Source of the DNA: Thermoleophilaceae bacterium
Lineage (GTDB): Bacteria; Actinomycetota; Thermoleophilia; Solirubrobacterales; Thermoleophilaceae
NCBI GenBank assembly: GCA_014534235.1
Contig: JACVRW010000024.1
Coordinates: 1 to 33,265, forward strand
Length of the DNA: 33,265 nt
Direction: 5' to 3'
Positions within the stretch are counted from its first letter, which is position 1, and each line of letters starts with the position of its first letter. The position numbers and the translations under genes were made by a program. The notes beneath the pieces were generated by a model, which worked only from the letters and a program-made list of their open reading frames with translations, was not told where the DNA came from and did no database searches. Below, in pieces: positions 8,560 through 26,762 of the stretch.

Positions 8560-9786
8560 TCAGACCGCCGCCAGCGCCTCCAGCAGCCGGTCCACCTCGT
8601 CCTCGGTCGTGTAGTGCACAAAGCCGGCGCGGACGGCGCCGGCCGGCCCCAGGCCGAGCGCGCGCATCGGCTCGAGCGCGTAGTAGTTCCCGTCCCAGAC
8701 GTAGATCCCGCGCTCCGCGAGCCGCGCCGCCACGCTGCGCGGCTCGTGACCGGCGAGGTTGAAGCAGAAGGTGGGCGTGCGACCCTTCGGGCGCGGGATC
8801 CCGTAGAGCGTCAGGTGGTCGGGAATGCCGGCAAGGAAGCGCTCGGCCAGGGCCGTCTCGTGCCGCTCGATCCGCTCGAAGGCGGCGTCGAGTTCGCCGT
8901 CGCCGAGCGAGCGCAGGTAGTCGACCGCCGCCGCGGTCCCGGCGATCGCCTCATGCGACTGCGTGCCGGTCTCGAACCGGTGGCCCGGCGGCGTCTCGCT
9001 CGCGGGTCTCACCCGGTCGGCCGGCAGCGACTCCGCGAGATCCGGCCGGATCGCCGCGATCCCCAGGTGCGGGCCGAAGAACTTGTATGGGGAGCAGAGC
9101 AGCACGTCGATGCCCCAGGCGCGTGCCCGCAGGCGCCGGTGCGGCGCCAGGTGGACGCCGTCGGCCCAGGCGAGTGCGCCGGCTCGGTGGGCCGCCGCGG
9201 CGATGCGCGCGGCGTTCGGGATCGACCCCACCGCGTTCGAGCCCAGCGTGAACGCCACGACGCGGGTCCGCTTGCCGATCAGCTCCTCGAGCGCGTCCTC
9301 ATCGAGCGTCACGTCGTCCGTCCGGATGGGCGCGGTCCTGACGACGAGGTCGTGGTCGCGGGCCACCAGCAGCCAGGGCGAGACGTTGGCGTCGTGGTCG
9401 AGCTGGGTGACCACGATCTCGTCGCCCGCCTGGAGCGTGCGGCCGACGGCGTGCGCCAGCTGGAAGTTGAGCGTCGTCATGTTCGCCCCGAACGCGATCC
9501 CCTGGGGCTCCGCGCCGGTGAACTCCGCGGCGTCCAACCGGGCTCGGGCCACCGAGTCGTCGGTGGCAGTCGAGGTTGCGAAGGCTCCCCCGAGGTTCGC
9601 GTTCGAGTCGCGCAGGTAGCCGGCCACGGCGTCGATCACCTCCTGCGGCGTCTGCGATCCGCCCGGCCCGTCGAGGTAGGCGGCGCCCGCGGCGAGCGCC
9701 GGAAAGCGCTCGCGCACCGCCGCGAGGTCAAGCGGCGGCGTGCTCCTTGAGGTAGTGGAGGAGGCCACCGCTTTGAAGGATCTCAC
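8560..9786 (-). CDS. Cysteine desulfurase-like PLP enzyme (aminotransferase class V)
   Basis: A 408-residue fold-type I PLP enzyme of the cysteine desulfurase-like group (TIGR01976-like). YLDGPGGSQTP (37-47) replaces the N-terminal motif of true desulfurases; WADGVHLAPH (about 207-216) holds the PLP-ring Asp209, and CSPYKFFGPHLG (231-242) contains the Schiff-base Lys235. GTQSHEAIAGTAAAVDYL is the next conserved block. The mobile catalytic-cysteine loop of IscS/SufS is not obvious, so activity on cysteine is uncertain. The GTG at 9786 overlaps the aconitase 3' end by 59 bases and its GGAAGGAG is very close; a GTG six codons later is an alternative start. It is probably co-transcribed with the aconitase. 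Confidence 0.87.
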   Translation of the reverse strand: MRSFKAVASSTTSRSTPPLDLAAVRERFPALAAGAAYLDGPGGSQTPQEVIDAVAGYLRDSNANLGGAFATSTATDDSVARARLDAAEFTGAEPQGIAFGANMTTLNFQLAHAVGRTLQAGDEIVVTQLDHDANVSPWLLVARDHDLVVRTAPIRTDDVTLDEDALEELIGKRTRVVAFTLGSNAVGSIPNAARIAAAAHRAGALAWADGVHLAPHRRLRARAWGIDVLLCSPYKFFGPHLGIAAIRPDLAESLPADRVRPASETPPGHRFETGTQSHEAIAGTAAAVDYLRSLGDGELDAAFERIERHETALAERFLAGIPDHLTLYGIPRPKGRTPTFCFNLAGHEPRSVAARLAERGIYVWDGNYYALEPMRALGLGPAGAVRAGFVHYTTEDEVDRLLEALAAV

Positions 9787-11686
9787 GCTCCTTCCGCGCG
9801 AAGTCGTGGGTCACGGCGAAGTCCTCGCCGAACTCCTCGATCCGGACGGTTATCGAATCGGCGCCGCTCTCGAGCTCGTCCCTCACGGCGGGAAGCGTCC
9901 AGGTGTCCCCCACCCTCGCCCGGTCGTAGTCCAACTCGTGCATGAACGTCAGCGCGAGGATCCCTTGGGCCACCAGGTTGCGCCGGTGGATGCGCGCGAA
10001 CGACTTCGCAAACACCGCCTTCACCCCGAGCTGGAGCGGGGCCAGCGCGGCATGCTCGCGCGACGACCCCTGCCCATAGTTGTGGCCGCCCACGATGAAG
10101 CCCGTCCCCCACTCGCGCATGCGCTTGCGGAACTCGGGGTCGCGGTGCTGGAACGTGAACTCGGCGATCGCGGGGATGTTCGAGCGGTAGCTCATGACGA
10201 TGACGCCGTCCGGCGCCAGGTCCCCGGTCGAGATGTTGTCCGGCTGGACGGTCGCGATCCGCGCGGAGAGCTCCGGCTCGAGCGGCGTGTGCTCGGGCGG
10301 CGTCTTGATGTTCGGGCCGCGAGGGATCTCGATGTCGTGGGCCTCGTCTCCCGGCGCCGGCGGGAAGATGTGCCTGTCGTCGACGTACGGCTTCAGCTCG
10401 GGCATCTCGAGCAGCTCGGGCGGATCGCCGTACTCCCGCGGGTCGCGGATCTCGCCGTGCAGCATCGACACCGCGGCGAGAGCGGGCGAGCACAGGTACA
10501 CGGAGTCGTCCGGGGTGCCGGAGCGGCCGGGGAAGTTGCGGTTGAACGTGCGCAGCGAGTTCGCGTGCGACGGCGGCGCCTGGCCCATCCCGACGCACGG
10601 GCCGCACACGGGCTCGAGCATCCGCACGCCGCCCTCGACCAGCTGGCGGTAGACGCCGGACTCGGCGATCGCCACGAGGATCTGCCGCGAGCCCGGGGTG
10701 GCGGTCGCGGTCACGCGCTCGTGCACCTCCTGCCCGCCGTTGTCGGCAAGCACGGCGCCTGGGAGCGCCAGGTCGAGATAGGCGGAGTTCACCGACGAGC
10801 CGATGCAGACCTGCTCGACCGGCGTGCCCGCCACCTCCTCCACCGGCACGACGTTGTCGGGGTTCTGTGGCTTCGCGACGAGCGGCCCAAGTTCGGCGAG
10901 GTCGATCTCGATGCGCTCGTCGTACTCGCAGCCTGGCTCTGGCCCGAACTCCGCGAAGTCGTCCTCGCGCTGCTGGCGACGCAGCCACTCCCGGGTGTTC
11001 TCGTCCGGCGGGAAGATGGCGGAGGTGGCGCCGAGCTCGGCGATCATGTTCGCGATCGTGCCCCGCTCGGGGACGGCGAGGTCGGTCGTGCCCGGCCCCG
11101 TGAACTCGAAGACCTTGTTCTTGCCCCCGCGGACGGTCAGCCGGCGCAGCAGCTCGAGGATCACGTCCTTCGCCTGCACCCACGGCCGCGGCAGGGCGTT
11201 CGTCAGGTGAACCTCAACTACCCGGGGGCAGGCGATCTCATAGGGATGCCCGGCCATCGCCACCGCCACGTCGAGGCCTCCGGCCCCGATCGCAATCATC
11301 CCGAGCGCGCCGCTCGTGGTGGTATGCGAGTCGGCGCCCACCAGGATGCCGCCGGGCTTGGCGTAGCGCTCGATGTGGACGTAGTGGCAGATGCCGTTGC
11401 CGGGGCGCGAGTAGTCGATGCCGTACTTGCGGCAGAGCGCCTGCAGCATGCGGTGGTCGTCCGGGTTCTTGAAGTCGAGCTGGATCACGTTGTGGTCCAC
11501 GTACTGCACCGCCCGCTCCACCTGAACCCGTGGGACTTCGAGCTGCTCGAACTGCATCAGCGCCATCGTCCCAGTGGCGTCCTGGAGGAGCGTCTGGTCG
11601 ACCCGCAGCGAGATGGCCGCGGCTGGTGTGAGCTCGCCCGTGACGAGGCGGTCGCGGAGGATCTGGCGAGTGAGGTTCTCGGGCAC
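9728..11686 (-). CDS. Aconitate hydratase, short (Aquifex-type) form
   Basis: A 652-residue aconitase interconverting citrate and isocitrate in the TCA cycle. The length and sequence fit the short mitochondrial/Aquifex-type class rather than the 900-residue AcnA class. 4Fe-4S ligands appear as Cys294 (QVCIGSSVNSAY) and Cys361/Cys364 (EPVCGPCVGMG). Substrate residues are seen in GADSHTTTSGALG (about 117-129) and the C-terminal swivel domain NYGQGSSREHAALAP. The GTG start at 11686 has no obvious Shine-Dalgarno sequence. It is divergent from the HhH gene with 83 bases between starts. A second, full-length AcnA-type gene lies about 2 kb away on the same strand, so the genome carries two aconitase classes close together. 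Confidence 0.93.
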   Translation of the reverse strand: MPENLTRQILRDRLVTGELTPAAAISLRVDQTLLQDATGTMALMQFEQLEVPRVQVERAVQYVDHNVIQLDFKNPDDHRMLQALCRKYGIDYSRPGNGICHYVHIERYAKPGGILVGADSHTTTSGALGMIAIGAGGLDVAVAMAGHPYEIACPRVVEVHLTNALPRPWVQAKDVILELLRRLTVRGGKNKVFEFTGPGTTDLAVPERGTIANMIAELGATSAIFPPDENTREWLRRQQREDDFAEFGPEPGCEYDERIEIDLAELGPLVAKPQNPDNVVPVEEVAGTPVEQVCIGSSVNSAYLDLALPGAVLADNGGQEVHERVTATATPGSRQILVAIAESGVYRQLVEGGVRMLEPVCGPCVGMGQAPPSHANSLRTFNRNFPGRSGTPDDSVYLCSPALAAVSMLHGEIRDPREYGDPPELLEMPELKPYVDDRHIFPPAPGDEAHDIEIPRGPNIKTPPEHTPLEPELSARIATVQPDNISTGDLAPDGVIVMSYRSNIPAIAEFTFQHRDPEFRKRMREWGTGFIVGGHNYGQGSSREHAALAPLQLGVKAVFAKSFARIHRRNLVAQGILALTFMHELDYDRARVGDTWTLPAVRDELESGADSITVRIEEFGEDFAVTHDFARKEREILQSGGLLHYLKEHAAA

Positions 11687-13596: not shown

Positions 13597-13797
13597 AACC
13601 GGTCGCTTCGCTCGCCGTTCTCGAATTACTTGACAAAACCGGTCGCTTCGCTCGCGGTTTTCGAGTTACTTGACAAAACCGGTCGCTTCGCTCGCGGTTT
13701 TCGAATTACTTGACAAAACCGGTCGCTTCGCTCGCGGTTTCCGAATTACTTGACAAAACCGGTCGCTTCGCTCGCGGTTTTCGAGTTACTTGACAAG
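13591..13797. repeat. 40-bp tandem repeat array, five full copies plus a partial
   Basis: Full units start at 13591, 13631, 13671, 13711 and 13751, exactly 40 bases apart with no spacers; a 7-base sixth start is at 13791. Units are almost identical: the 13591 unit has two changes in its CGCGGTTTT arm, the 13711 unit has one T-to-C change, and the units at 13631 and 13751 read CGAGTT where others read CGAATT. Each unit contains AAAACCG and CGGTTTT arms (7 bp) around a 13-base GTCGCTTCGCTCG centre, and each begins (T)TGACA. On the minus strand each unit reads hairpin, T-run, then GTCAAGTAA, echoing the Leu-Val-Lys-stop end of acnA. The array fills the gap between the acnA stop and the thioesterase start. 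Period 40 is not a multiple of 3, so it is not coding. A tandem terminator role is possible. Confidence 0.95.
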
Positions 13798-16518
13798 GTC
13801 GCGAAGCACGAAGTGGAGGATCCCGCCGTGCCGGTAGTAGCGCCACTCGTTCGGGGTGTCGATCCGCACCCGCGCGTCGAACTCGACGCCCCTCGACGTC
13901 CGAACCCGAATCGTGCGGGCGCCCTCCTCGAGCGGGGCGAGGTCGAAGGTCTCGTGGCCGGTCAGCCCCAGCGACTCGCCCGACTCGCCCTCCGGGAACT
14001 GCAGCGGCAGCACGCCCATCCCCACGAGGTTCGAGCGGTGGATGCGCTCGTAAGACTCCGCCAGAACGAATCGAACGTCCAACAGGCGAGGCCCCTTCGC
14101 CGCCCAGTCCCGCGAGGAGCCGGAGCCGTACTCCTTGCCGGCGAGCACGCAGAGCGGCACCCCCTCGTCGGCGTACTGCATCGCCGCCTCATAGATCGTC
14201 GTGACCTCACCGTCCTTCGTGGTGAAGCCGCCCTCCGTGCCGGACGCCAGAAGGTTGCGGAGCCGGATGTTCGCGAAGGTGCCGCGCATCATCACCTCGT
14301 GGTTCCCCCGTCGCGACCCGTAGGAGTTGAAGTCCCGCGGCTCGACGCCCCGCTCGAGCAGATACCTGCCGGCCGGCGAGTCCTTCTTGATCGACCCGGC
14401 AGGCGAGATGTGGTCGGTCGTCACGCTGTCGCCCAGCAGCGCGATCGCGCGCGCTCCCTCGATCGACTCAAAGCCGTCCGGCGGCTCGGCCGGCATGCCG
14501 TCGAAGTACGGTGGCCGCTTGACGTACGTCGAGTCTGGGTCCCAGGCGTAGCGGTCGCCCCCGGGAACGTCGAGCGCGTTCCAGTTCTGGTCGCCGTGGA
14601 AGACCTCGCCGTAGCTGCGGCGGAACATGTCGGACTCGATCGCCCGCTCGATCGCTTCGTTCACCTCCCGCTGCGAGGGCCAGATGTCGCGCAGGTATAC
14701 GCCGTCCTGGAGCGGCTCCGTGACGAGGTCGACGTCCATGCGGCCGGCGAGCGCGTAGGCCACGCACAGCGGCGGCGAGGCCAGGTAGTTCATCTTGACC
14801 TCGGGGTGGATCCGACCCTCGAAGTTGCGGTTGCCGGACAGCACCGACGCGACCACCAGGTCGCGCTCCTGGATCTCACGCGAGATCTCATCTGGGAGCG
14901 GCCCGGAGTTACCGATGCAGGTGGTGCAGCCGTACCCGACGAGCCCGAAGCCGAGCTGCTCGAGCGGCTCGATCAGCGCGGCGCGCTCGAGGTACTCGGT
15001 GACGACCTTCGAGCCCGGAGCAAGCGACGTCTTGACCCAGGGCCTCCGTGTCAGGCCGGCCTCGACCGCACTCCTCGCCAGCAGCCCGGCGCCAAGCATC
15101 ACCGACGGGTTGGACGTGTTCGTGCAGCTCGTGATCGCCGCGATCACGACGGCGCCATGGTCGAGCCCCTCCCCTCGCTCCGCGACCGCCGCGCCGGCCC
15201 CGGCCGGGACCGCCCGCCCGCCGGCGTCGCCGCTGTCCCCCTGAGCGACCGGCGCCACGTGCATCGCCGGCGCCGGCGGGTCGCTCGCCGGAAACGACTC
15301 AGCGTCGGCCTCCTCATAGGTGCCGGGCTCAGGCTCGGCGGGCACGACGCCCTCGAGCGCCCTCCGAAAGTCCGCAGCCGCCCCGCTGAGGGCCACGCGG
15401 TCCTGGGGACGCCTGGGCCCCGCCAGCGACGGCTCGACGTCGCCGAGATCGAGCTCGAGCGTGTCGGAGTAGGTGGCCTCCTCGGAGTCCGCGTCATGGA
15501 AGAGGCCCTGCGCGCGGCAGTAGGCCTCGACGAGCTCCACGCGCTCGGGCCGGCGGCCGGAGAACTCGAGATACCGAAGCGTCTCGTCGTCGACCGGGAA
15601 GATGCCGCAGGTTGCGCCGTACTCGGGCGCCATGTTGCCGATCGTGGCGCGGTCGGCCAGCGGCAGGTTCGCCAGTCCCGCACCGAAGAACTCCACGAAC
15701 TTGCCGACCACGCCGCGCTCGCGCAGCATCTGGGTGACCGTTAGCACGAGGTCCGTGGCGGTCGAGCCCTCCGGCAGCTCGCCCGTGAGCTTGAAGCCGA
15801 CCACCTGCGGGATCAGCATCGACACCGGCTGACCGAGCATCGCCGCCTCCGCCTCGATGCCGCCGACGCCCCAGCCGAGCACCCCGAGCCCGCCGATCAT
15901 CGTGGTGTGCGAGTCGGTGCCGACGAGGGTGTCCGGGAACGCCTGACCGTCGCGGATCTCCACCACCCGGGCGAGGTACTCCAGGTTCACCTGGTGGCAG
16001 ATGCCCGTGTTTGGCGGGACGACCTTGAAGTTGTCGAACGCGGTCTGTCCCCACCGGAGGAACGCGTAGCGCTCGCGGTTGCGTTCGAACTCGAGCTCGG
16101 CGTTGCGCTGAAACGCGAGCCGCTCGGCGAACACGTCGACCTGGATCGAGTGGTCGATGACGAGCTCGACCGGCACCTGCGGGTTGATGCGCCTCGGATC
16201 GCCGCCAAGGGCATCCATCGCATCACGCATGGCTGCCAGGTCGACGATCGCGGGTACGCCGGTGAAGTCCTGCATCAGGACCCGCGACGGCTGGTACGCG
16301 ATCTCGTGCGACGGCTCCGCGGTCGCAACCCAGCCGGCCACCGCTTCGGCGCCGGCGTCCTCCCCGCGCCGCAGGAGGTTCTCGAGCAGGATCTTCAGCG
16401 AGTACGGCAGCCGGGCGACGTCGAACCTCGACTGGAGGCCGTCGAGACGGAAGATCTCGTAAGAACGCCCGCCGACTTCGAGCGTCGAGCGGGCGCCAAA
16501 CGTGTCCGGGTGCGCCAC
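13786..16518 (-). CDS. acnA: Aconitate hydratase A
   Basis: A 910-residue AcnA/IRP-type aconitase, the usual length for this class. The start GTG 16518 gives [24 protein letters not shown], matching the family N-terminus; the longer open frame upstream is antisense to the PHP gene. The active site includes [13 protein letters not shown] (170-182) and [20 protein letters not shown] (201-220). The 4Fe-4S ligands are Cys465 ([11 protein letters not shown]), Cys531 and Cys534 ([11 protein letters not shown]). The swivel domain shows [12 protein letters not shown] and [17 protein letters not shown] Pro/Ala/Gly-rich insertion at about 390-450 lengthens the linker. It catalyses citrate-isocitrate interconversion and in apo form may bind RNA. 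The start is only 18 bases from the divergent PHP gene; its stop abuts the 40-bp repeat array. Confidence 0.95.
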
Positions 16519-16536
16519 TCGATAGACACTACCCGC

Positions 16537-17568
16537 ATGCACGATCTGGCCTGCGTCGTCCACCTCCACTCGCTCTACTCGGACGGCACCGGCACGGTGC
16601 GCGAGATCGCGCGCGCCGCACAGCGGGCGCGTGCCGACGTCGTCCTCCTGACCGACCACGACACGCTCGCGGCCAAGCGACGCGGCGAGGAGGGCTGGTA
16701 CGGCGACGTCCTGGTGCTGGTCGGCGAGGAGGTCTCGCCGCGGAGGCGCAACCACTACCTCGCGTTCGACGTCGACGCGCCGATCGACCATAGGGGCCTC
16801 GACGGTGCGGGCATCTGCAGGGCGGTGCGCGACGCCGGCGGGTTCGGGTTCGCGGCTCACCCGTTCTCGCAGGGCTCGGCGCGCTTCAAGCGCGCCCCGG
16901 GCATGCCGTTCGAGGCGCTCGACTGCGAGGCGATCCACGGGATCGAGCTATGGAGCTTCGTCAACGACACGGCGGAGGGCGCCGGGAGCATCCGGGAGAT
17001 CGCGCGCTTCGTGGCCACGCCGAGCCGCGCCCTGGACCACCCTCCCGAGCGCAACATGCGCGCCTGGGACGATCTCTGCCGCACCCGGCGCGTCGTCGCG
17101 ATCGGCGGGCTCGACGCCCATCAGTTCGGCAAGCGCGTGGGCCCGTTCGTGCCGCTCCGCGTGATGTCGTACCGCCGCTCGTTCCGGCAGATCCGCACGC
17201 ACGTGCTCTGCGACGAGCCTCCGGCGCGCGAGCTCGACCACGACCGCGAGCAGGTCTACCGGGCGCTGCGCAAGGGCCGCTGCTACATCTCGGTGGACGC
17301 GGTGGCGCCCGCCCGCGGCTTCACGTTCGAGGGGGAGGACCTGCCGATGGGCGCCGAGGCGCCCGCCGGCCGCCGAGCGCTACGGGCGCGGACTGCGCTT
17401 CCCGCCCGGCTGCGGCTGCTGCGCGACGGCCAGGAGATCGCAGCGGCCGAGGGCACGGAGCTCGAGGACGAAGTGGAGGAGCCGGGCGCCTACCGGGTCG
17501 AGGCGTACCGGCGGGCGCGGGGCCGCGAGCGCACCTGGATCCTCTCGAATCCGATCTACCTGCGTTGA
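16537..17568 (+). CDS. PHP-domain metal-dependent phosphoesterase
   Basis: A 343-residue protein with a complete PHP metal site: HLHSLYSDG (9-17), LLTDHDTLA (37-45), a Glu in [27 protein letters not shown], and GLDAHQFGK near residue 190. These bind two or three divalent metals in PHP phosphoesterases such as histidinol phosphatase and YciV-type RNase AM. The C-terminal third (after about 245) is a beta-rich domain rich in Arg with [15 protein letters not shown], typical of the PHP proteins with an added immunoglobulin-like tail. Substrate unknown. ATG at 16537 lies 18 bases from the divergent acnA start, so the two promoters must overlap or lie within the genes. The stop is followed by decayed sequence. 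Confidence 0.87.
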
Positions 17569-17928: not shown

Positions 17929-19608
17929 ATGCCTCGTCTCGTGCCGCTGGCCGCCCTGCTCGTCCTGCTCGTAGCCGCCTCCCCGGCCGCAGCCCAGCCG
18001 AACGTCGTGGTCCTGATGACCGACGACCAGACCGAGGCCTCGCTCAGCTACATGCGGAACGTGAACGGGCTGCTGGGCGCGGAGGGCACTACGTTCCAGC
18101 AGTCGTTCTCGAGCTTCCCGCTTTGCTGTCCGTCGCGCACCACGCACCTCACGGGTCAATACGCGCATAACCACCGCGTGCTCCACAACGCCGGGCCGTT
18201 CGGCGGCTACGCCGTGTTCGATCACGCCAACTCGCTGCCCGTCTGGCTGCAGCAGGCGGGCTACCGGACGATGCACGTGGGCCGGTACCTGAACGGCTAC
18301 TCGGCCAGGTCCGGGATCCCCGCGGGCTGGAGCGACTGGCACGGGATGCCTCACGCGAACGCCTTCAACTACGCGTCGTGGAAGGTGAACGAGAACGGCG
18401 TCATACGGTCGTATCCCGACGACCCCGGAGAGCACCAGACGGACTTCCTCGCCGAGCGCGCCGGCGAGCTGATCGAGGACGCGGCCTCGGACGACGCCCC
18501 CTTCTTCCTCTCGCTGTGGTTCTCGGCGCCCCACAGCGGCGCCCCGCGCGACCCAGACGATCCGACCTGGATCCGCACGCCATCGCCGGCCGAGCGCCAT
18601 CGCGACGCCTTCGCCGGGGCCACCATGCCGCGGCTGCCGAACTTCGACGAGGCGAACATGTACGACAAGCCGCAGGTAGTGGCAGACCGCCCGCGCTTCA
18701 CGCCCGACAAGGAGGCCGCGATCGAGGAGAACTGGCGCCAGGAGCTCGAGACGCTGCTTGGGGTGGACGAGGCGGTGGCGTACGTGATCGACGTCCTGGC
18801 GGAAACCGGCGAGCTCGAGAACACGCTCATCGTCTACACGGCCGACAACGGCTACATGCACGGCGAGCACCGCGCCCTTGCCGAGAAGGTGCTGCCCTAC
18901 GAGCCGTCGATCCGGGTGCCGCTCATCCTCCGCGGCCCGGGCGTGCCGCGCGGCCGCATAGACGACCGGCTCGTGGCGAACGTCGACGTGCCGGCCACGA
19001 TCCTCGACGTGACCGGCGCCCAGCCGGGACGGGTGCAGGATGGTCGCTCGCTCGTGGACCTCCTGACCGACCCGGGCGCCGAGTGGGGTCGGGACATACT
19101 GATCGAAAACGGGTACGGCGCCAACCGGGTGCCCGCCTATCGCGCCATCCGCAACTACCGCTTCCTCTACGTCGAGCACAACACCACCGGCGAGTACGAG
19201 CTCTACGACCTCGAGGAGGACCCGTACCAGCTCCGCAGCCGGGACGGCTCCGCGCGGTACGCCGCGGTCCAGCGGGACCTGAGGGCCCGCCTTCGCCGGC
19301 TGAAGCGCTGCGCCGGCGCGAGCTGCCTCGAGCACCCGCTGCTCAAGCTGCACGTCCGGCCGCGGCCGACCAGCTGCGTGCGGGGCGATCTGCGGGTCTA
19401 CGTCAGCGGGCCGGAGAAGCGGGCGGTGGTCGCGGCCGACGTGCTCGTCGGCCACCGCCGGGTGGCGCGCGTCAGCGCGCCGCCGCTCATGCGACGCATC
19501 CCCGAGGAAAGCCTTCGCCCGGGACGTCCGTTCCGGCTGCGGGTGCGCGCCGAGACCCGGGACGGGCGCCGGGTCACGCTCGACCGCCGCGTGCGCGCAT
19601 GCCGCTGA
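17929..19608 (+). CDS. Secreted sulfatase with C-terminal beta-rich domain
   Basis: A 559-residue type I sulfatase hydrolysing sulfate esters outside the membrane. Residues 1-22 are a signal peptide ending ASPAAA. The domain opens PNVVVLMTDDQ, with metal-binding Asp32/Asp33; FPLCCPSRTTHLTGQYAHNH holds the C-x-P-S-R formylglycine motif with Cys66 the residue to be converted. TADNGYMHGEHR and LYDLEEDPYQL are the later conserved blocks. The overall similarity is to N-acetylglucosamine-6-sulfatase-like proteins. After about residue 455 an Arg-rich, Cys-bearing tail ending VTLDRRVRACR forms an extra domain absent from its neighbour. ATG 17929 is chosen over GTG 17911 because it starts the signal peptide directly. 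No formylglycine-generating enzyme is in the window. Tandem paralogue follows immediately. Confidence 0.92.
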   Translation: MPRLVPLAALLVLLVAASPAAAQPNVVVLMTDDQTEASLSYMRNVNGLLGAEGTTFQQSFSSFPLCCPSRTTHLTGQYAHNHRVLHNAGPFGGYAVFDHANSLPVWLQQAGYRTMHVGRYLNGYSARSGIPAGWSDWHGMPHANAFNYASWKVNENGVIRSYPDDPGEHQTDFLAERAGELIEDAASDDAPFFLSLWFSAPHSGAPRDPDDPTWIRTPSPAERHRDAFAGATMPRLPNFDEANMYDKPQVVADRPRFTPDKEAAIEENWRQELETLLGVDEAVAYVIDVLAETGELENTLIVYTADNGYMHGEHRALAEKVLPYEPSIRVPLILRGPGVPRGRIDDRLVANVDVPATILDVTGAQPGRVQDGRSLVDLLTDPGAEWGRDILIENGYGANRVPAYRAIRNYRFLYVEHNTTGEYELYDLEEDPYQLRSRDGSARYAAVQRDLRARLRRLKRCAGASCLEHPLLKLHVRPRPTSCVRGDLRVYVSGPEKRAVVAADVLVGHRRVARVSAPPLMRRIPEESLRPGRPFRLRVRAETRDGRRVTLDRRVRACR

Positions 19609-19609
19609 G

Positions 19610-21052
19610 ATGGCGCGGCGTGGGGCGTTTGCGCCGGCGCTCCTAGCCGCGCTCGCCGCCGGCTGCGGTGTCGCTGGAGGCGACCCCGCGGATTCTCGTG
19701 ACGAGCGACCGAACGTGGTCGTCTTGATGACGGACGACCAGACGGTGGAGTCGGTCCGGGTAATGTCGGGGGTCCGCAGGACGCTCGTCGAGCGCGGCAC
19801 CACGTTTCGCCGCAGTTTCGTCTCGTTCCCGCTGTGCTGCCCCTCGCGGGCCACGTTCCTGACCGGGCAGTACGCGCACAACCACGGCGTTCTCGGCAAC
19901 CGCCCGCCGACAGGCGGCTACGGCCGCCTCGACACGGAGGAGACGCTCCCGGTTTGGCTCCGAAGGGCCGGCTACCGCACCATGCACGTGGGGAAGTTCC
20001 TGAACCGCTACGGCATCGACCGGCCTCCCACTGAGGTGCCGCCCGGCTGGGACGAGTGGCACGCATCGGTCGACCCGTTCACCTACGAGTACTACCGCAC
20101 CATGCTGAACGAGAACGGGACGCTGCGGACCTACCACTCCGCCTACTCGACGGACCTCTATGCGCGCCGGGCCGTGGAGCTGGTCCGCCGAGCGGCGGAC
20201 GGCGAGCGGCCGTTCTTCCTCTCGCTCGGCTTCCTCGCGCCCCACGCGGGCGGCCCGCGGCAGGCCGACGACCCGGCCGGCCTGGCCACGCCCGTGCCGG
20301 CCCCCCGCCACCGCGACCGGTTCGCCGCCGAGGCGCTGCCGCCCGGCGTGCGCGCGGCTTTCGACGAGCCGGATATGTCCGACAAGCCGGCCTACCTGCG
20401 GGCGCGCGCGCCGATCTCGGCCGAGCTGGCCGCGGGGGTCGAGGAGAACTACCGGCAGCGCCTCGAGTCGCTGCTCGCCGTCGACGAGGCGGTGGTGCAG
20501 TTGGTCGAAGCCCTGCGGGCGGTGGGCGAGCTGGACGACACGATCGTGATCTTCACCTCCGACAACGGCTTCTTCCACGGCGAGCACCGCATGGAGAGCG
20601 AGAAGATGCTGGCCTACGAGCCGTCCATCCGGGTTCCGCTGATTATGCGCGGGCCGGGGTTGCCGGCCGGCGCCAAGCGCCACCAGCTCGTGACGAACGC
20701 CGACCTTGCGCCGACGATCCTGGACCTTGCCGAGGCGACGGCTAGGAAGCCGCAGGACGGAAGGTCGCTGCTGCCGCTGCTCGCCGACCCCCGCCTCGAC
20801 TGGAGCCGCGACCTCCTGATCGAGGGGGCGGACGGATTCACGGTGGTTGCCTTCGAGGCGCTCCGCAGCCCCCGCTTCCTATACGTGCGGTACGTGAACG
20901 GGGAGCGTGAGCTCTACGACCTGCGGCGCGACCCTCATCAGCTGCAAAGCCTGCACGAGGATCCGGCCTACGAGGGGGTCCGGGCCCGGCTCGCCCGGCG
21001 GCTCCGGGCGCTGAGCGCCTGCGCGGGCCGCAGCTGCCACACCCGGCGGTGA
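19610..21052 (+). CDS. Sulfatase, probable lipoprotein
   Basis: A 480-residue sulfatase, clearly paralogous to the preceding gene: PNVVVLMTDDQTVESVRVM, FPLCCPSRATFLTGQYAHNHGVLGN with the C-x-P-S-R Cys76, YRTMHVGKFLNRYG, TSDNGFFHGEHRMESEKMLAYEPSIRVPLI and LYDLRRDPHQL. The N-terminus (LLAALAAGCG) has an Ala-Ala-Gly-Cys lipobox-like site at Cys19, so it is likely anchored as a lipoprotein, while the first sulfatase has an ordinary signal peptide. It ends soon after the sulfatase core, without the extra C-terminal domain. The ATG begins one base after the previous TGA (TGAGATG), so the genes are co-transcribed. The pair may act on the same sulfated glycan, one released and one membrane-bound. Confidence 0.92.
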   Translation: MARRGAFAPALLAALAAGCGVAGGDPADSRDERPNVVVLMTDDQTVESVRVMSGVRRTLVERGTTFRRSFVSFPLCCPSRATFLTGQYAHNHGVLGNRPPTGGYGRLDTEETLPVWLRRAGYRTMHVGKFLNRYGIDRPPTEVPPGWDEWHASVDPFTYEYYRTMLNENGTLRTYHSAYSTDLYARRAVELVRRAADGERPFFLSLGFLAPHAGGPRQADDPAGLATPVPAPRHRDRFAAEALPPGVRAAFDEPDMSDKPAYLRARAPISAELAAGVEENYRQRLESLLAVDEAVVQLVEALRAVGELDDTIVIFTSDNGFFHGEHRMESEKMLAYEPSIRVPLIMRGPGLPAGAKRHQLVTNADLAPTILDLAEATARKPQDGRSLLPLLADPRLDWSRDLLIEGADGFTVVAFEALRSPRFLYVRYVNGERELYDLRRDPHQLQSLHEDPAYEGVRARLARRLRALSACAGRSCHTRR

Positions 21053-22165: not shown

Positions 22166-23349
22166 TTTACTTTTTGAAGTATAGAGCGGCGCGCGGCCTC
22201 CTCCTCACGCTCGCGCTCCCAGCGCGACACCGTCTTCCGCAGCTGGAAGAAGGCGACGATGCCCGGGGGGATCGGCAGCCAGAAGGCGATGATCCGGTAC
22301 GTCAAGACCGCAGGGAACACGATCGCACTGGGGACGTCGAACAGGACGAATGCCCCGATCATCCCCGCGTCCACGGATCCCACACCACCGGCCGGAGAGG
22401 GGATCAGGTTGGCGGCCATCCCTACGAAGAAGCCTTGGACGAGGACGCCGACGGAGACGTCTCCACCGAAGGCCTCGAAGCTCGCCCAGAGCACGCCGAT
22501 GTTGGCCGCCCAGAAGCCGACGGCGCCGCCCACCGCCAGCGCGCCGCGCCGCGGGCTCCCGATGTACGCGATCGCCGTCCGCACGCCGCTCGCGATCGTG
22601 GCCGGGCCCTTGGCGAGCCGCGTCAGGTAGCGGGTGTGGCGGTAACCGGCTCCGAAGCGCTGGATTCGCCGCTCCATGTCGTTCGGGATCAGGGCGATCA
22701 GCAGGAAGACGCCGATCACCGCCGCGGCGAGCACCGCGGGGACGATCGTGCCGGCCAGCGGCGCGCTGCCCGGCAGCACGCCCGTGCGCAGGAGGATCCC
22801 GAAGACGATCAGCGTGGCGAGGTAGACGAAGTACGTCATGACGAGGAAGGCGACCATCCGGCAGCCCGCGCGGCGGCGAAGCATTCCGGCCTTGCGCAGG
22901 GCCCAGTACGTGAGCACGATGCCGCCCGCGCCGGCCGCCGAGAAGATGCGCGTCGCGGCAAGGCCCGCCATCGTTATCTGGTAGGAGGCGCGCACGTCCA
23001 GGCGGCGACTCACCTCGTCCTCGATCCTGCCGGATAGGACGCCCCTGAACAGCGCGACGTAGGCGGCGAACGCGCCGACGTCCAGGGCGATCGCGATCAA
23101 TATCCAGTACCAGACCGCGTTCCCCAGGTTGTCGACCGCCTCGTCGGTGCCGACGATCGTCGGGAAGAGCACGTAGATGGCGACCACGACGAGCGCGATC
23201 ACGGTGGCGCCCACGAGCAGCCTGCGCCGATCCTGGAGCAGCGCCTGGAAGCGGCTTACCTCGAGCTCTTCCTCAGCGCCCTCTTCCTCCTCCTCGACGT
23301 CGTCGAGCTGGGGCTCCTCGTACCGCAGGCGGCGCTGGTCCGCCCCCAT
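22162..23349 (-). CDS. LPG synthase TM / UPF0104 family membrane protein
   Basis: A 395-residue polytopic membrane protein. An acidic, cytoplasmic N-terminus (EEEEEGAEEELEV near 19-31) precedes about eight hydrophobic helices. FSAAGAGGIVLTYWALRKAGM and the C-terminal IPSPAGGVGSVDAGMIGAFV match the conserved glycine-rich blocks of the lysylphosphatidylglycerol-synthase transmembrane/YbhN (UPF0104) family, whose MprF relatives flip lipids. No synthase or tRNA-dependent domain is attached, so a flippase-like or lipid-binding role is the most likely guess. The ATG at 23349 is chosen because its A is also the last base of the upstream PAP2 stop (TGATG); the longer open frame is antisense sequence. 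Both gene ends overlap neighbours, so PAP2, this gene and trxB form one operon. Confidence 0.85.
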   Translation of the reverse strand: MGADQRRLRYEEPQLDDVEEEEEGAEEELEVSRFQALLQDRRRLLVGATVIALVVVAIYVLFPTIVGTDEAVDNLGNAVWYWILIAIALDVGAFAAYVALFRGVLSGRIEDEVSRRLDVRASYQITMAGLAATRIFSAAGAGGIVLTYWALRKAGMLRRRAGCRMVAFLVMTYFVYLATLIVFGILLRTGVLPGSAPLAGTIVPAVLAAAVIGVFLLIALIPNDMERRIQRFGAGYRHTRYLTRLAKGPATIASGVRTAIAYIGSPRRGALAVGGAVGFWAANIGVLWASFEAFGGDVSVGVLVQGFFVGMAANLIPSPAGGVGSVDAGMIGAFVLFDVPSAIVFPAVLTYRIIAFWLPIPPGIVAFFQLRKTVSRWEREREEEAARRSILQKVK

Positions 23350-24263
23350 CAGCCGGCCCGCGGCTCGAGCCGACGAATCGCACCCGCCACCAGGCGGGCC
23401 GCGGGCTCCATCGCGGGTGCCCCCCGCCAGATCGCCTCCGCCAGCGCGAGGCCGGCCACCAGGTCGACCACGTAGTGCTCGCCCAGATACACGAGACCGA
23501 AGCCGAGCGCCAGCGCATACGCCCATCCGAGCGCGCCGTGGCGACGCCCGACCTGCGATAGGACGCGGGCCGCCATGATCGACGTGCCGAAGTGAAGTGA
23601 GGGCATTGCGGCGAACGGGTTCCCTTCAAGGGAATGGTAAAGCGGACGCCAGAGACGTCCCCAGGCACGCTCGCCGGCCTCCGCCATGATGCGGCGGACC
23701 GGCGGCATGTTGCCGTTCCGCGCGGCCCACCAGGGCGGCGCAGTCGGTACGAGCCAGTAGATCATGCAGCCGAGGTCGAAGCACGCGGACATCAGCACGG
23801 CGGAGCGCGGGTAGTGCCGGCGGTGCCGGAGGAGGATGTAGACGAGCGTCCCGTGCGGCACGGCGAACCAGCTCCAGTGGACGGCCGACAGGGCGTAATC
23901 CAGGATCCCGACATGTCCCTCTCGGCCGAGCGCGTGCTGCAGCCGGGTCGTCGGGCAATCCCCGAGCCCGAGCGCGCGGTCCCAGCGGATCGGGTAGTCG
24001 ATCCGGAGCCGCTCGAACAGCACCTCGGCGTCGTCGTCGGGCATGTCGTAGTGCGCGAAGTAGGCCCACATCTGCACTGCGTAGATGCCCACGTCCCTGA
24101 GCGGCGTGCGGGGCGCGGCGAGCGCGAGCGCGGCGGGGGCCGGCCACGTCAGCGCCGACACCACCGGCACCGGGAGCTTCAGGCGATGCCGAACGAGCGG
24201 CGTGGCGAGTCCGACCGCCACCGCGCCCCACGCCAGCAGGCGGAGGGCGCGGGTGCTTCGCAA
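23349..24263 (-). CDS. PAP2-family membrane enzyme (Aur1/IPC-synthase-like)
   Basis: A 304-residue integral membrane protein of the PAP2_3 type. Conserved blocks: VPTAPPWWAARNG (172-184), MPSLHFGTS (220-228) with His224, and LGEHYVVDLVAG (260-271) with His263 and Asp267. These match the C2 and C3 motifs of acid-phosphatase-like phosphotransferases such as inositol phosphorylceramide synthase and bacterial relatives. It probably transfers or removes a phosphate or phospho-head group of a membrane lipid on the outer face; the substrate is not known. The start is TTG 24263; an inverted repeat lies right before it. Its stop overlaps the ATG of the UPF0104 gene, which supports a joint lipid function. 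Confidence 0.85.
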   Translation of the reverse strand: MRSTRALRLLAWGAVAVGLATPLVRHRLKLPVPVVSALTWPAPAALALAAPRTPLRDVGIYAVQMWAYFAHYDMPDDDAEVLFERLRIDYPIRWDRALGLGDCPTTRLQHALGREGHVGILDYALSAVHWSWFAVPHGTLVYILLRHRRHYPRSAVLMSACFDLGCMIYWLVPTAPPWWAARNGNMPPVRRIMAEAGERAWGRLWRPLYHSLEGNPFAAMPSLHFGTSIMAARVLSQVGRRHGALGWAYALALGFGLVYLGEHYVVDLVAGLALAEAIWRGAPAMEPAARLVAGAIRRLEPRAG

Positions 24264-24357: not shown

Positions 24358-26106
24358 TCACCGCGCCGGCTGCGGCGTCGGCTCCTCGATTGGACCGGGC
24401 ATGAGCTCCTCCGCCGGCGGGATCTCGATCCCCAGCACCCTCATTCGCCGCTTCAGCGTGCGATACGCAAGGCCGTAGATCTGACGCGAGCTGTAGCCGT
24501 AGGACACGTAGTCGGACGGATCCTGGACGTAGGGCGGGGCGAAGACGTACGCCGCGCGCCGGGCCAGGTCCGTCACGACCCGCTCCACCGTGTGGCGGTG
24601 GCGGGCGTCCTCGGCGATCGCGTCACGGAGGAAGCGGACCCCGAAGGCGACGTGGCGGTGCTCGTCGCGCTCGACGAGGCCGAAGCCCTCGCAGAACCCC
24701 GGATACAGGGAGTGCTCGAGCATGTACTCGCGGATCAGGGTCTGGCCGGTCACCGCCAGGAACCCCTCGATCACGAGGTGGTAGGTCGCGATCCCCTCCA
24801 CGAACAGGCCAAGGTCGTCGGGCCGCGCCTTGATCCGTCGCGCGACGTCGCGGAGGCCGTCGTCGAACACCTCCCGCCACGGCGGCAGCAGGATCTGCTC
24901 GACCTCGCTCATCCGGCCACGGATGTCGTCGGCGGACAGGCACATCACCTCGGCCCCGAAGCGGTCGAAGAAGGCGGCGTGACGGGCCTCATCGACGAGC
25001 TGGGTTGCGAGGAAGAGCTCGATCTCTCCGCTCGGCGCGGCCGGGAGGAACGGCGCCAGGTCGGCCGTCACCCGCTCCTCGCCGACGAAGAACGAGCCGA
25101 GGGTCCAGATCGTGCTCTCCTGTGCCTCGCGCGGGGTCGTCACCCACTGCTCGCGGTCCACCGCGAAGTCGATTTCCTGGACCTTCCAGTTCTCGCGCTC
25201 CCAGAGCGCATAGAGCTGGCGGTAGTCGAGCAGCGCGCGGCCGTCTCGCGCGGCCTCCCGCTCGTGCCCGGGATCGCCCTGGCCCTGCCCGGCGCCGTCG
25301 GCGGCGTAGAGCCCGGCCCGCCAAGCCTGCAGCCGGCGCTGCGCCTCCTCCCGCCTGAGCTCGGCCTCGTCGCCGCCCTGCGAGCGGTCGATCCAGCGCC
25401 CGAGCACCGTGATCGGGTGGATCTGTCCCTCGATCGTCGTCAGCTGCGACTGCATCGCCCGGATGGGCGTGACCTCGCCGGCGGCCATGCGCTGGTACGC
25501 CTCGAACGACACGCGGGCGGTGCCGACGACCTCGCGGTCCTGGGGCGGCTGATGCGTCACCGCGAGTCGCTCGCCGTCGCGCGCCTGTATGTACCAATCG
25601 CCGCCGCCGTGCCCGGTCACCTGGTAGCGGACGGTGAAGTCGTGGCCGCGGGTCCATTCGGGCTCGACCAGGTAGGGCAGGATGCGGAAGAGGACGTCCG
25701 GGTCGAGCGTCCCGCCCGCGCCGACGATGTCGCCCAGCGCCACGCCGGTGGCGGACATCCGGCGCAACCGCAGCGCGTGGCGACGCTTGCCGCGGATGCG
25801 GAGGCGCCCGCGGAGGATCAGCCGGACCGGCCCGGAGTGCCCGGTGGCCAGGTCGACGAGCGTCCGCGGATCGGTGTGGAGCCTGAAGTCGGCGCCTCCG
25901 CGACCTCCGGCCTCCTCGACCCGCGCCCGGCCATCCAGTATCGCGACCCGCCTCGGCTCGAGCCGGTCGACGTCGATGTCAAAGCTGAGCGGGCCGCGGA
26001 TGTGTCCCGCCGCCGCCGGCAGCGTCATCAAGATCAGCCGAGCCGCCAGCTCGGGTTCGTGCGCCGCGATCCGCTCGAGCGCCGCGGCCTGACGGTCGGC
26101 GTCCAT
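24358..26106 (-). CDS. SCP2-like domains fused to an R2lox-like di-metal oxidase
   Basis: A 582-residue fusion. Residues about 10-125 and 140-240 look like two SCP2 sterol-carrier modules: each has the late pattern of D-P-x-x-x-x-x-L-A-T-G or FEAYQRMAAGEVTPIRAMQSQ, with GRLRIRG as the SCP2 G-x-L-x-x-x-G strand. Residues about 295-530 are a ferritin-like ribonucleotide-reductase R2 fold. Metal ligands are Glu343 (FFVGEERV), Glu373 and His376 (VDEARH), Glu447 (VIEG), Glu482 and His485 (RDEHRH). Val346 and Tyr442 sit where Val71 and Tyr162 of M. tuberculosis R2lox make their ether cross-link. R2lox binds a long-chain fatty acid near a Mn/Fe centre; the SCP2 modules could deliver the lipid. ATG 26106 begins 5 bases after the MBL gene stop. 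Function unknown; the fold assignments are strong. Confidence 0.88.
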   Translation of the reverse strand: MDADRQAAALERIAAHEPELAARLILMTLPAAAGHIRGPLSFDIDVDRLEPRRVAILDGRARVEEAGGRGGADFRLHTDPRTLVDLATGHSGPVRLILRGRLRIRGKRRHALRLRRMSATGVALGDIVGAGGTLDPDVLFRILPYLVEPEWTRGHDFTVRYQVTGHGGGDWYIQARDGERLAVTHQPPQDREVVGTARVSFEAYQRMAAGEVTPIRAMQSQLTTIEGQIHPITVLGRWIDRSQGGDEAELRREEAQRRLQAWRAGLYAADGAGQGQGDPGHEREAARDGRALLDYRQLYALWERENWKVQEIDFAVDREQWVTTPREAQESTIWTLGSFFVGEERVTADLAPFLPAAPSGEIELFLATQLVDEARHAAFFDRFGAEVMCLSADDIRGRMSEVEQILLPPWREVFDDGLRDVARRIKARPDDLGLFVEGIATYHLVIEGFLAVTGQTLIREYMLEHSLYPGFCEGFGLVERDEHRHVAFGVRFLRDAIAEDARHRHTVERVVTDLARRAAYVFAPPYVQDPSDYVSYGYSSRQIYGLAYRTLKRRMRVLGIEIPPAEELMPGPIEEPTPQPAR

Positions 26107-26111
26107 CCCGG

Positions 26112-26762
26112 TCACTCCCGCTTGGTCATGATCCGCACCTCGACCGGCGCCCGCTCGGCGAAGACGCGGGCGTCCTCCTCGGTGCCGATGTGCTCCCCCC
26201 AGTGCATCGGCACGGCCACGCGGGGCTGAATGCGCCGGGCCGCCTCGGCGGCCTCCTGGGCGGTCATGACGTAGACACCACTCACGGGAAGCAATGCGAC
26301 GTCGACACCCGTGACACCGTCCATCTCGGGGATGACGTCGGTGTCGCCGGAATGGTAGAGCCGCTCCCCGCGGACGGTCAGCTCGTATCCGACCCACCCG
26401 GCCTCTCGCGGGTGGAACGGGTTGCCCTCGCCGTCGCGCTTCGAGGTGTTGTAGGCGGCCACGGCACTGACGTGCAGGCCCCGCACGAGCTCGTCCTCGA
26501 GCGTCTCCCCCGGAGCGATCGAATGGACCTGTCCGCTCACCCGCTCGGCGACGGCGGCGGGGCCCACGAGCCGGGTGCCGCTCGCCGACAGGCGCTCGAG
26601 GTCCTGCGGCGAGAAGTGGTCGTAGTGCCCGTGCGTGATGAGGATCAGATCCGCGGGCGGCGAGTCCGGGCTCACGCGGTAGGGATCGATGTAAACCACG
26701 GCCCTCCCCACCCGGATCCGAAAGCCCGAGTGGCCGAGCCACTCGAGCGAATCCAGCAGCAT
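26112..26762 (-). CDS. MBL-fold metal-dependent hydrolase (UlaG-like)
   Basis: A 216-residue metallo-beta-lactamase-fold protein of the short UlaG/YtnP-like type. The metal motif T-H-G-H-Y-D-H is at 43-49 (His44, His46, Asp48, His49); further ligands are in LYHSGDTDVIPEM and PMHWGEHIGT. The opening SLEWLGHSGFRIRVGRAVVYIDPY is typical of the branch. It is a hydrolase of unknown substrate; lactones and phosphodiesters are common in the family. It is the first gene of a minus-strand run, and its stop is 5 bases from the SCP2/R2lox start, so co-transcription is likely and its substrate may relate to the lipid product of that oxidase (inference). Confidence 0.88.
   Translation of the reverse strand: MLLDSLEWLGHSGFRIRVGRAVVYIDPYRVSPDSPPADLILITHGHYDHFSPQDLERLSASGTRLVGPAAVAERVSGQVHSIAPGETLEDELVRGLHVSAVAAYNTSKRDGEGNPFHPREAGWVGYELTVRGERLYHSGDTDVIPEMDGVTGVDVALLPVSGVYVMTAQEAAEAARRIQPRVAVPMHWGEHIGTEEDARVFAERAPVEVRIMTKRE

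What the first reader, a model, noticed from the sequence alone, without database searches (positions are those of the whole stretch)
24358..26106. SCP2 lipid-carrier domains fused to an R2lox-like oxidase
The protein joins apparent tandem SCP2 modules (about 10-240) to a C-terminal R2-type di-metal domain. All six ligands are seen (Glu343, Glu373, His376, Glu447, Glu482, His485), and the spacing Glu447 to Glu482 is 35 residues, as I recall for Glu167 and Glu202 of M. tuberculosis R2lox. Val346 and Tyr442 occupy the positions of the ether-cross-linking Val71 and Tyr162. R2lox binds a long-chain fatty acid, so a fused lipid carrier would explain how substrate reaches the centre. R2lox proteins known to me are single-domain; the fusion is the strongest candidate here for an undescribed system.
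Basis: partly seen in the sequence, partly recalled or inferred. Interest (0 to 1): 0.78.

Follow-up and report, generated by a model that had tools for sequence, protein, structure and literature searches.

The report
Lipid-carrier domains fused to R2lox-like oxidase
An uncultured actinobacterium makes a single protein that joins two lipid-holding SCP2 domains to a metal-and-oxygen oxidase of the R2lox type; relatives keep the fusion, and a separate branch of the same oxidase family has an SCP2 domain on its other end, which suggests that this poorly understood oxidase works on a carried lipid.

Summary
The minus-strand ORF at 24358-26106 encodes 582 aa: two tandem SCP2 modules (about 1-120 and 124-242), a poorly ordered linker, and an R2-type di-metal domain (about 291-570). 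All six ligands and the Val/Tyr pair align with G. kaustophilus R2lox. The fusion is real: it is found in ten genomes of six genera (Thermoleophilaceae and Solirubrobacterales MAGs).

The interpretation needs two corrections. (1) The oxidase is R2lox-like, not a textbook R2lox. It belongs to an actinobacterial subfamily in which the cavity tyrosine Y175 is Gln, and it scores below NCBIfam's R2lox cut-offs. It keeps the R2lox-specific Ala (A171) that is Phe in ribonucleotide reductases. (2) The fusion is not unique. A second, more widespread architecture carries one SCP2 domain at the opposite, C-terminal end. The tree separates the two, so SCP2 joined this oxidase family at least twice.

The conserved neighbourhood is no evidence of function: relatives lacking the gene keep the same neighbours. 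Best reading: a two-electron lipid oxidase whose SCP2 domains capture and present the lipid. Chemistry and substrate are inferred. No paper on either fusion was found in the library searched. New variant of a known kind.

The parts
24358..26106 (-). CDS of the 582-aa SCP2-SCP2-R2lox-like fusion protein
   Evidence: homologues
25747..26106 (-). SCP2 module 1 (residues about 1-120)
   Evidence: Pfam PF02036 2.5e-06 on the isolated piece; model elements H3-16 H18-33 E40-46 E52-57 E60-65 E74-78 H80-88 H93-98 E102-106 H108-117
25381..25737 (-). SCP2 module 2 (residues about 124-242)
   Evidence: Pfam 0.0027 alone, 5.8e-08 for the same piece of L008; hhalign to module 1 E 1.7e-6 and to the C-terminal SCP2 of R2-SCP2 proteins 1.9e-9; PDB profile hits to lipid-transfer proteins 5e-4
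25237..25380 (-). linker (residues about 243-290), partly helical, variable in length between relatives
   Evidence: pLDDT mostly 40-66, about 87 at its end; gaps in alignment
24397..25236 (-). R2lox-like di-metal domain (residues about 291-570)
   Evidence: Pfam Ribonuc_red_sm 1.1e-10; 34 best PDB fold matches all R2lox, TM-score up to 0.82 normalised by target
25078..25080 (-). codon of E343, site-1 ligand (= GkR2lox E69)
25069..25071 (-). codon of V346 (= cross-linking V72)
   Evidence: invariant Val in 61 of 61 covering subfamily members and 3 references
24988..24990 (-). codon of E373, bridging ligand (= E102)
24979..24981 (-). codon of H376, site-1 ligand (= H105)
24781..24783 (-). codon of Y442 (= cross-linking Y162)
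   Evidence: invariant Tyr in all rows
24766..24768 (-). codon of E447, site-2 ligand (= E167)
24754..24756 (-). codon of A451 (= A171, Ala in R2lox, Phe in RNR R2)
   Evidence: meaning from PMC6399176
24742..24744 (-). codon of Q455 (= Y175 of GkR2lox; Tyr replaced by Gln)
   Evidence: Y175 described in PMC4118035
24661..24663 (-). codon of E482, bridging ligand (= E202)
24652..24654 (-). codon of H485, site-2 ligand (= H205)
26112..26762 (-). upstream MBL-fold metal-dependent hydrolase, 5 bases before the fusion gene; ancestral neighbour, not specific to the fusion
   Evidence: Pfam Lactamase_B_3 3.4e-28; present without the fusion in relatives
23349..24263 (-). downstream PAP2-family protein; ancestral neighbour, not specific to the fusion
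   Evidence: Pfam PAP2_3 9.3e-27

Best explanation
The gene encodes a self-contained lipid oxidase. The two N-terminal SCP2 modules bind a hydrophobic molecule (take it from the membrane or hold it in solution) and, across a flexible linker, present it to the ligand tunnel of a C-terminal R2lox-like domain. There a di-metal centre (Mn/Fe or Fe/Fe) bound by E343, E373, H376, E447, E482 and H485 activates O2 and carries out a two-electron oxidation (hydroxylation or desaturation) of the lipid; V346 and Y442 can form the R2lox ether cross-link during cofactor maturation. Shown by computation: the domain architecture, the ligand set, occurrence in ten genomes, and a separate fusion of SCP2 to the other end of sister proteins. 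Inferred: metal identity, cross-link, lipid cargo, substrate transfer and the reaction. The substrate cannot be named from sequence.
For: SCP2 and R2 domains both above Pfam cut-offs. All ligands plus V72, Y162 and A171 equivalents invariant in classes A, B and C and in three solved R2lox. Best fold matches are R2lox only. Fusion conserved at 50-65% identity across 6 genera. A second architecture with SCP2 at the opposite end, supported by Pfam 8e-9 and a model with pLDDT 91, pTM 0.89, groups apart (100/99) from the window clade (100/100). SCP2 matches are few here (3 places in the window's genome), so repeated joining to one oxidase family is unlikely to be neutral. [quoted passage not shown] GkR2loxI was reported to hydroxylate alkanes (PMC10867098); the SCP2 domain of UbiJ holds hydrophobic quinone intermediates for O2-dependent hydroxylases (PMC6747719). 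The genome encodes a B12-dependent (class II) ribonucleotide reductase, so the R2-type protein need not serve that role.
Against: No substrate, metal or activity data. The cavity tyrosine Y175 proposed to take part in substrate oxidation is Gln, so the chemistry may differ from R2lox. SCP2 folds also sit in regulators and in a coiled-coil protein, so the fold alone does not prove lipid carriage. Single-domain members (class B) manage without SCP2 in the same genomes. No electron-donor gene specific to it was found.
Confidence: 0.6

Rival explanations
1. The SCP2 modules are scaffolds or membrane anchors: they bind lipid or a partner protein to place the oxidase in a complex (as UbiJ organises the Ubi complex) but do not hand the substrate to the metal site.
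For: UbiJ both binds intermediates and organises a complex (PMC6747719); tandem SCP2 also ends a long coiled-coil protein next to dnaE, a scaffold-like context; the linker is poorly ordered.
Against: The domain sits at opposite ends in two architectures, in one case with a confident relative placement on the R2 domain (pTM 0.89), which fits a direct role; no conserved partner gene was found once ancestral synteny is discounted.
Confidence: 0.2
2. It is a lipid-gated sensor or a protein that only oxidises itself: O2 activation makes the Val-Tyr cross-link and the SCP2 modules report lipid state; there is no catalytic turnover.
For: The physiological function of R2lox is stated to be unknown (PMC6060897), apart from the alkane report (PMC10867098); SCP2 pairs occur in HxlR-type regulators; Y175 is replaced by Gln.
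Against: The ligand-tunnel Ala (A171 equivalent) is kept in all 62 members of classes A-C, which argues for a ligand reaching the metals.
Confidence: 0.12
3. It is a ribonucleotide reductase R2 subunit with an added domain.
For: Pfam Ribonuc_red_sm match; database names of related plasmid-borne proteins say 'ribonucleotide-diphosphate reductase subunit beta'.
Against: Best profile, sequence and fold matches are R2lox; position A451 is Ala, where RNR R2 has Phe; the RNR beta profile scores 25 bits against a cut-off of 309; the genome has a vitamin B12-dependent RNR.
Confidence: 0.02
4. The conserved neighbours (MBL-fold hydrolase, enoyl-CoA hydratase, PAP2, flippase-like protein, cytochrome oxidase) form one pathway with the fusion protein.
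For: Same gene order in most fusion-bearing genomes, and a divergent cox2-cox1 pair also in the more distant g30 genomes.
Against: Relatives without the fusion (L167, L168, L170, L172) keep MBL, ECH, COX2 and the flippase-like gene in the same order, with PAP2 too in all but L170, and tblastn of the fusion finds nothing there. The cluster is older chromosomal synteny into or out of which the gene has moved.
Confidence: 0.06

Closest known systems
R2lox (R2-like ligand-binding oxidase; G. kaustophilus GkR2loxI 4HR0, M. tuberculosis 3EE4/4AC8, S. acidocaldarius 6QRZ and 7QBK, Saccharopolyspora 7QBP)
   Same: Fold, six metal ligands and spacing, V72/Y162 pair, A171 and G68 equivalents
   Different: Q455 replaces Y175; about 20-25% identity in fold matches; below curated NCBIfam cut-offs; carries two N-terminal SCP2 modules
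R2-SCP2 proteins of Actinomycetota (class C of this report, about 425 aa; e.g. L033 1840-3120)
   Same: Same R2lox-like subfamily incl. Gln at the Y175 position, plus SCP2 homologous to the window's modules
   Different: One SCP2, at the C-terminus; separate group in the tree; wider spread
UbiJ / UbiT (SCP2 proteins of ubiquinone synthesis)
   Same: SCP2 domain that holds a hydrophobic substrate for hydroxylases (UbiJ shown, UbiT proposed; PMC6747719)
   Different: Separate protein, flavin or U32 hydroxylases, quinone substrates
Luciferase-like monooxygenase with C-terminal SCP2 (own genome, L100, 584 aa)
   Same: An oxygenase-type domain joined to SCP2
   Different: Luciferase-like (PF00296) domain, not a di-metal protein

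Membership tests
R2lox (R2-like ligand-binding oxidase) | Six metal ligands 4 Glu + 2 His in R2lox spacing | tested here: met
   E343, E373, H376, E447, E482, H485 align to E69, E102, H105, E167, E202, H205
R2lox (R2-like ligand-binding oxidase) | Cross-link-forming Val and Tyr (V72, Y162) | tested here: met
   V346 and Y442; invariant in classes A, B, C. Formation of the bond itself not testable here
R2lox (R2-like ligand-binding oxidase) | Ala in the ligand tunnel (A171) where RNR R2 has Phe | tested here: met
   A451; criterion from PMC6399176
R2lox (R2-like ligand-binding oxidase) | Conserved cavity tyrosine Y175 | tested here: not met
   Q455; Gln in 61 of 62 members of the subfamily, Tyr in the three references; criterion from PMC4118035
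R2lox (R2-like ligand-binding oxidase) | Score above the curated NCBIfam R2lox models | tested here: not met
   Best 115 bits against 194; the single-domain and C-terminal-fusion relatives tested also fail
R2lox (R2-like ligand-binding oxidase) | R2lox fold | tested here: met
   34 best Foldseek PDB matches are R2lox
R2lox (R2-like ligand-binding oxidase) | Mn/Fe or Fe/Fe centre, bound long-chain fatty acid, ether cross-link in the purified protein | not testable with these tools
   needs purified protein
SCP2 domain (PF02036) | Profile match above the gathering score | tested here: met
   40.2 bits against 21.3 for the whole protein, two stretches; module 1 alone 28.2; module 2 of the window alone 18.4, of L008 33.4
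SCP2 domain (PF02036) | SCP2 secondary-structure order (helix, strands, helices, strand, helix) | tested here: met
   Seen twice in the model, compared by hand with general knowledge of the fold; no Foldseek match of the N-terminal part was isolated
SCP2 domain (PF02036) | Binds lipid in a hydrophobic cavity | not testable with these tools
   model coordinates and binding data not available
Ribonucleotide reductase R2 subunit (class I) | Score above a curated RNR beta model, and Phe in the position of A171 | tested here: not met
   25 bits against 309; Ala not Phe; B12-dependent RNR in the genome

The most novel reading that the evidence does not exclude
Actinomycetota hold a distinct branch of Mn/Fe- or Fe/Fe-dependent lipid oxygenases (Gln in place of R2lox Tyr175) that has twice, at opposite ends of the chain, acquired its own SCP2 carrier, so that a water-soluble enzyme extracts, holds and oxidises a bulky membrane lipid in one polypeptide. 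The SCP2 cargo would reveal the long-sought natural substrate class of R2lox-type proteins.
Probability: 0.4. Interest if true: 0.77.

Novelty: new variant of a known kind. Interest (0 to 1): 0.6.

Why it matters
The natural role of R2lox proteins is largely open; their one consistent clue is a fatty acid in the metal-site tunnel. Finding SCP2 lipid-carrier domains fused to R2lox-like proteins in two separate ways is genetic evidence, independent of what co-purifies from E. coli, that the branch acts on lipids, and it gives constructs (SCP2 alone, R2 alone, fusion) with which substrate identity and transfer can be tested directly.

Tried and rejected
Gene-call or assembly artefact: rejected, since six further full-length and three partial copies exist; one of the partial copies (G025) is broken near residue 357 by a frame change, cause unknown. 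Neighbourhood as pathway evidence: rejected, ancestral synteny. RNR role: rejected. 'Only known fusion': rejected, as class C shows. Plasmid search for named R2-SCP2 records found only R2-part matches, none covering 80%. Literature: 'R2lox' with 'SCP2', 'sterol carrier protein' with 'ribonucleotide reductase' and 'domain fusion', and others gave no paper on either fusion; most subscription papers were not searchable. The genome-contig scan found only nine loci because its patterns came from the class A R2 region. The distance from V346 to Y442 in the model could not be measured (no coordinates).

Full report
OBSERVATION. The ORF at 24358-26106 is on the minus strand, starts with ATG and encodes 582 aa. 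Every residue number in the finding is right. Pfam finds SCP2 (4.5e-10, two stretches) and Ribonuc_red_sm (7.6e-10), both above the gathering score. The five best NCBIfam models are all R2-like ligand-binding oxidase (4e-33), but below their curated cut-offs. The best PDB sequence matches are R2lox structures.

THE N-TERMINAL HALF. Cut into two pieces, piece 1 passes the SCP2 cut-off. Piece 2 of the window protein does not on its own (0.0027), but piece 2 of relative L008 does (5.8e-08). A profile of the N-terminal halves finds lipid-transfer proteins, sterol carrier protein 2 and SCP2 domains of peroxisomal enzymes in the PDB: module 2 against 2c0l and 1qnd at 5e-4, module 1 against 1c44 and 4uei at about 2e-3. 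Profile comparison links module 1 to module 2 (E 1.7e-6) and both to the C-terminal SCP2 of other R2 proteins (1e-13 and 1.9e-9). The AlphaFold model (33 sequences, mean pLDDT 88.4) repeats one order of helices and strands twice, which fits two SCP2 folds, followed by a low-confidence linker (residues about 231-290) and the helical bundle.

THE C-TERMINAL HALF. Foldseek puts 34 R2lox structures ahead of any ribonucleotide reductase. Alignment of 62 subfamily members (classes A, B, C) and three solved R2lox shows all six ligands, V346, Y442, G342 and A451 invariant wherever covered. A451 matters: that position is Ala in R2lox and Phe in RNR R2 (PMC6399176). But Q455 stands where R2lox has the cavity tyrosine Y175 (PMC4118035), and Gln is found there in 61 of 62 members. 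In the tree the references are separated from the actinobacterial subfamily by a very long branch. So the domain works like R2lox on the evidence of its site, but two membership tests (Y175; curated score) were not met, and I do not file it as R2lox proper.

DISTRIBUTION. In 151 genomes of the same order the fusion occurs in ten: seven full-length (the window's genome, G037, G034, G031, G094, G029, G026), two cut by contig ends (G049, G018) and one split by a frame change (G025). They belong to five genera of the window's family and one of another family. Public titles name them Thermoleophilaceae, Solirubrobacterales or unclassified Actinobacteria MAGs. A class-wide search of 399 genomes found none outside the order. 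Single-domain relatives of about 305 aa (class B) are common, and the window's genome has one on contig C19 (L002).

A SECOND FUSION. Many relatives with open frames of about 430-450 aa turned out to be R2-SCP2: R2 domain first, one SCP2 last (Pfam 8e-9; 19-row alignment; model pLDDT 91, pTM 0.89). They occur across the order and in other classes (families f13, f18) of the phylum. In the wider tree the R2-SCP2 proteins form one group (100/99; the one 'B' inside it, L135, is cut by a contig end), the SCP2-SCP2-R2 proteins another (100/100), and the single-domain proteins fall in neither. SCP2 is at opposite ends and in different number, so at least two joining events are the simplest account. 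The window's genome has only three places matching PF02036, which makes repeated joining to one oxidase family unlikely to be accidental.

NEIGHBOURHOOD. TrxR-like, flippase-like, PAP2, [fusion], MBL-fold hydrolase | enoyl-CoA hydratase, COX2, COX1 is the conserved order. In relatives without the fusion the same neighbours are in the same order (L167, L168, L172; L170 without PAP2), with no trace of the fusion by tblastn. L166 has an unrelated gene in that slot. The gene is therefore a presence/absence cassette in older synteny, and the neighbours say little about function.

MECHANISM. R2lox binds a long-chain fatty acid in a tunnel to the metals and makes the Val-Tyr cross-link on O2 activation (PMC6060897). 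GkR2loxI was reported to hydroxylate alkanes (PMC10867098). UbiJ shows that an SCP2 domain can hold hydrophobic intermediates for O2-dependent hydroxylases (PMC6747719). The most likely reading is that the SCP2 modules capture and present a lipid that the R2 domain oxidises. Steps shown: architecture, site, conservation, repeated fusion. Steps inferred: metal identity, cross-link, cargo, transfer, product. The loss of Y175 means that the reaction may differ from R2lox. The genome's ribonucleotide reductase is B12-dependent, so an RNR role is unlikely.

NOVELTY. No paper in the library joins R2lox with SCP2, though most subscription papers are not held and database architectures could not be looked up. 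It is a new variant of a known kind: a recognisable oxidase type with a new domain architecture and a changed cavity residue.

Noticed in passing
L101 1927-4668 (-); L102 1793-4711 (-): A tandem SCP2 module clearly related to the window's N-terminal half (E 4e-42 for L101, 7e-16 for L102) ends a 913-972 aa coiled-coil-like protein encoded next to a dnaE-like gene in two genomes of the same order.
   Followed up: partly
L100 1453-3207 (-), own genome contig C13: Luciferase-like monooxygenase (PF00296) with a C-terminal SCP2 domain, 584 aa; similar proteins in L084, L087, L093, L095. A second oxygenase type joined to SCP2.
   Followed up: partly
L097 1453-2367 (-); L099 847-1761 (+): HxlR-type regulator followed by two SCP2 domains (304 aa), possibly a lipid-responsive regulator.
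   Followed up: no
L173 (own genome contig C1): B12-dependent ribonucleotide reductase whose first part carries matches to intein-bearing models, suggesting an intein.
   Followed up: no
L003 1408-2283 (+), own genome contig C23: A third, very divergent R2-type protein with all six ligands, Val and Tyr kept, but Phe at the A171 position and Gln at Y175.
   Followed up: partly
window 9728-11686 (-) and 13786-16791 (-): Two different aconitase-family genes within 7 kb.
   Followed up: no
window 17941-19608 (+) and 19715-21052 (+): Two neighbouring genes whose products share the N-terminal motif VVVLMTDDQT; the first is a Pfam sulfatase (PF00884), the second was not scanned.
   Followed up: no
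L029 8160-9856 (+): The fusion gene of G025 is broken by a frame change near residue 357; whether assembly error or decay is not known.
   Followed up: no
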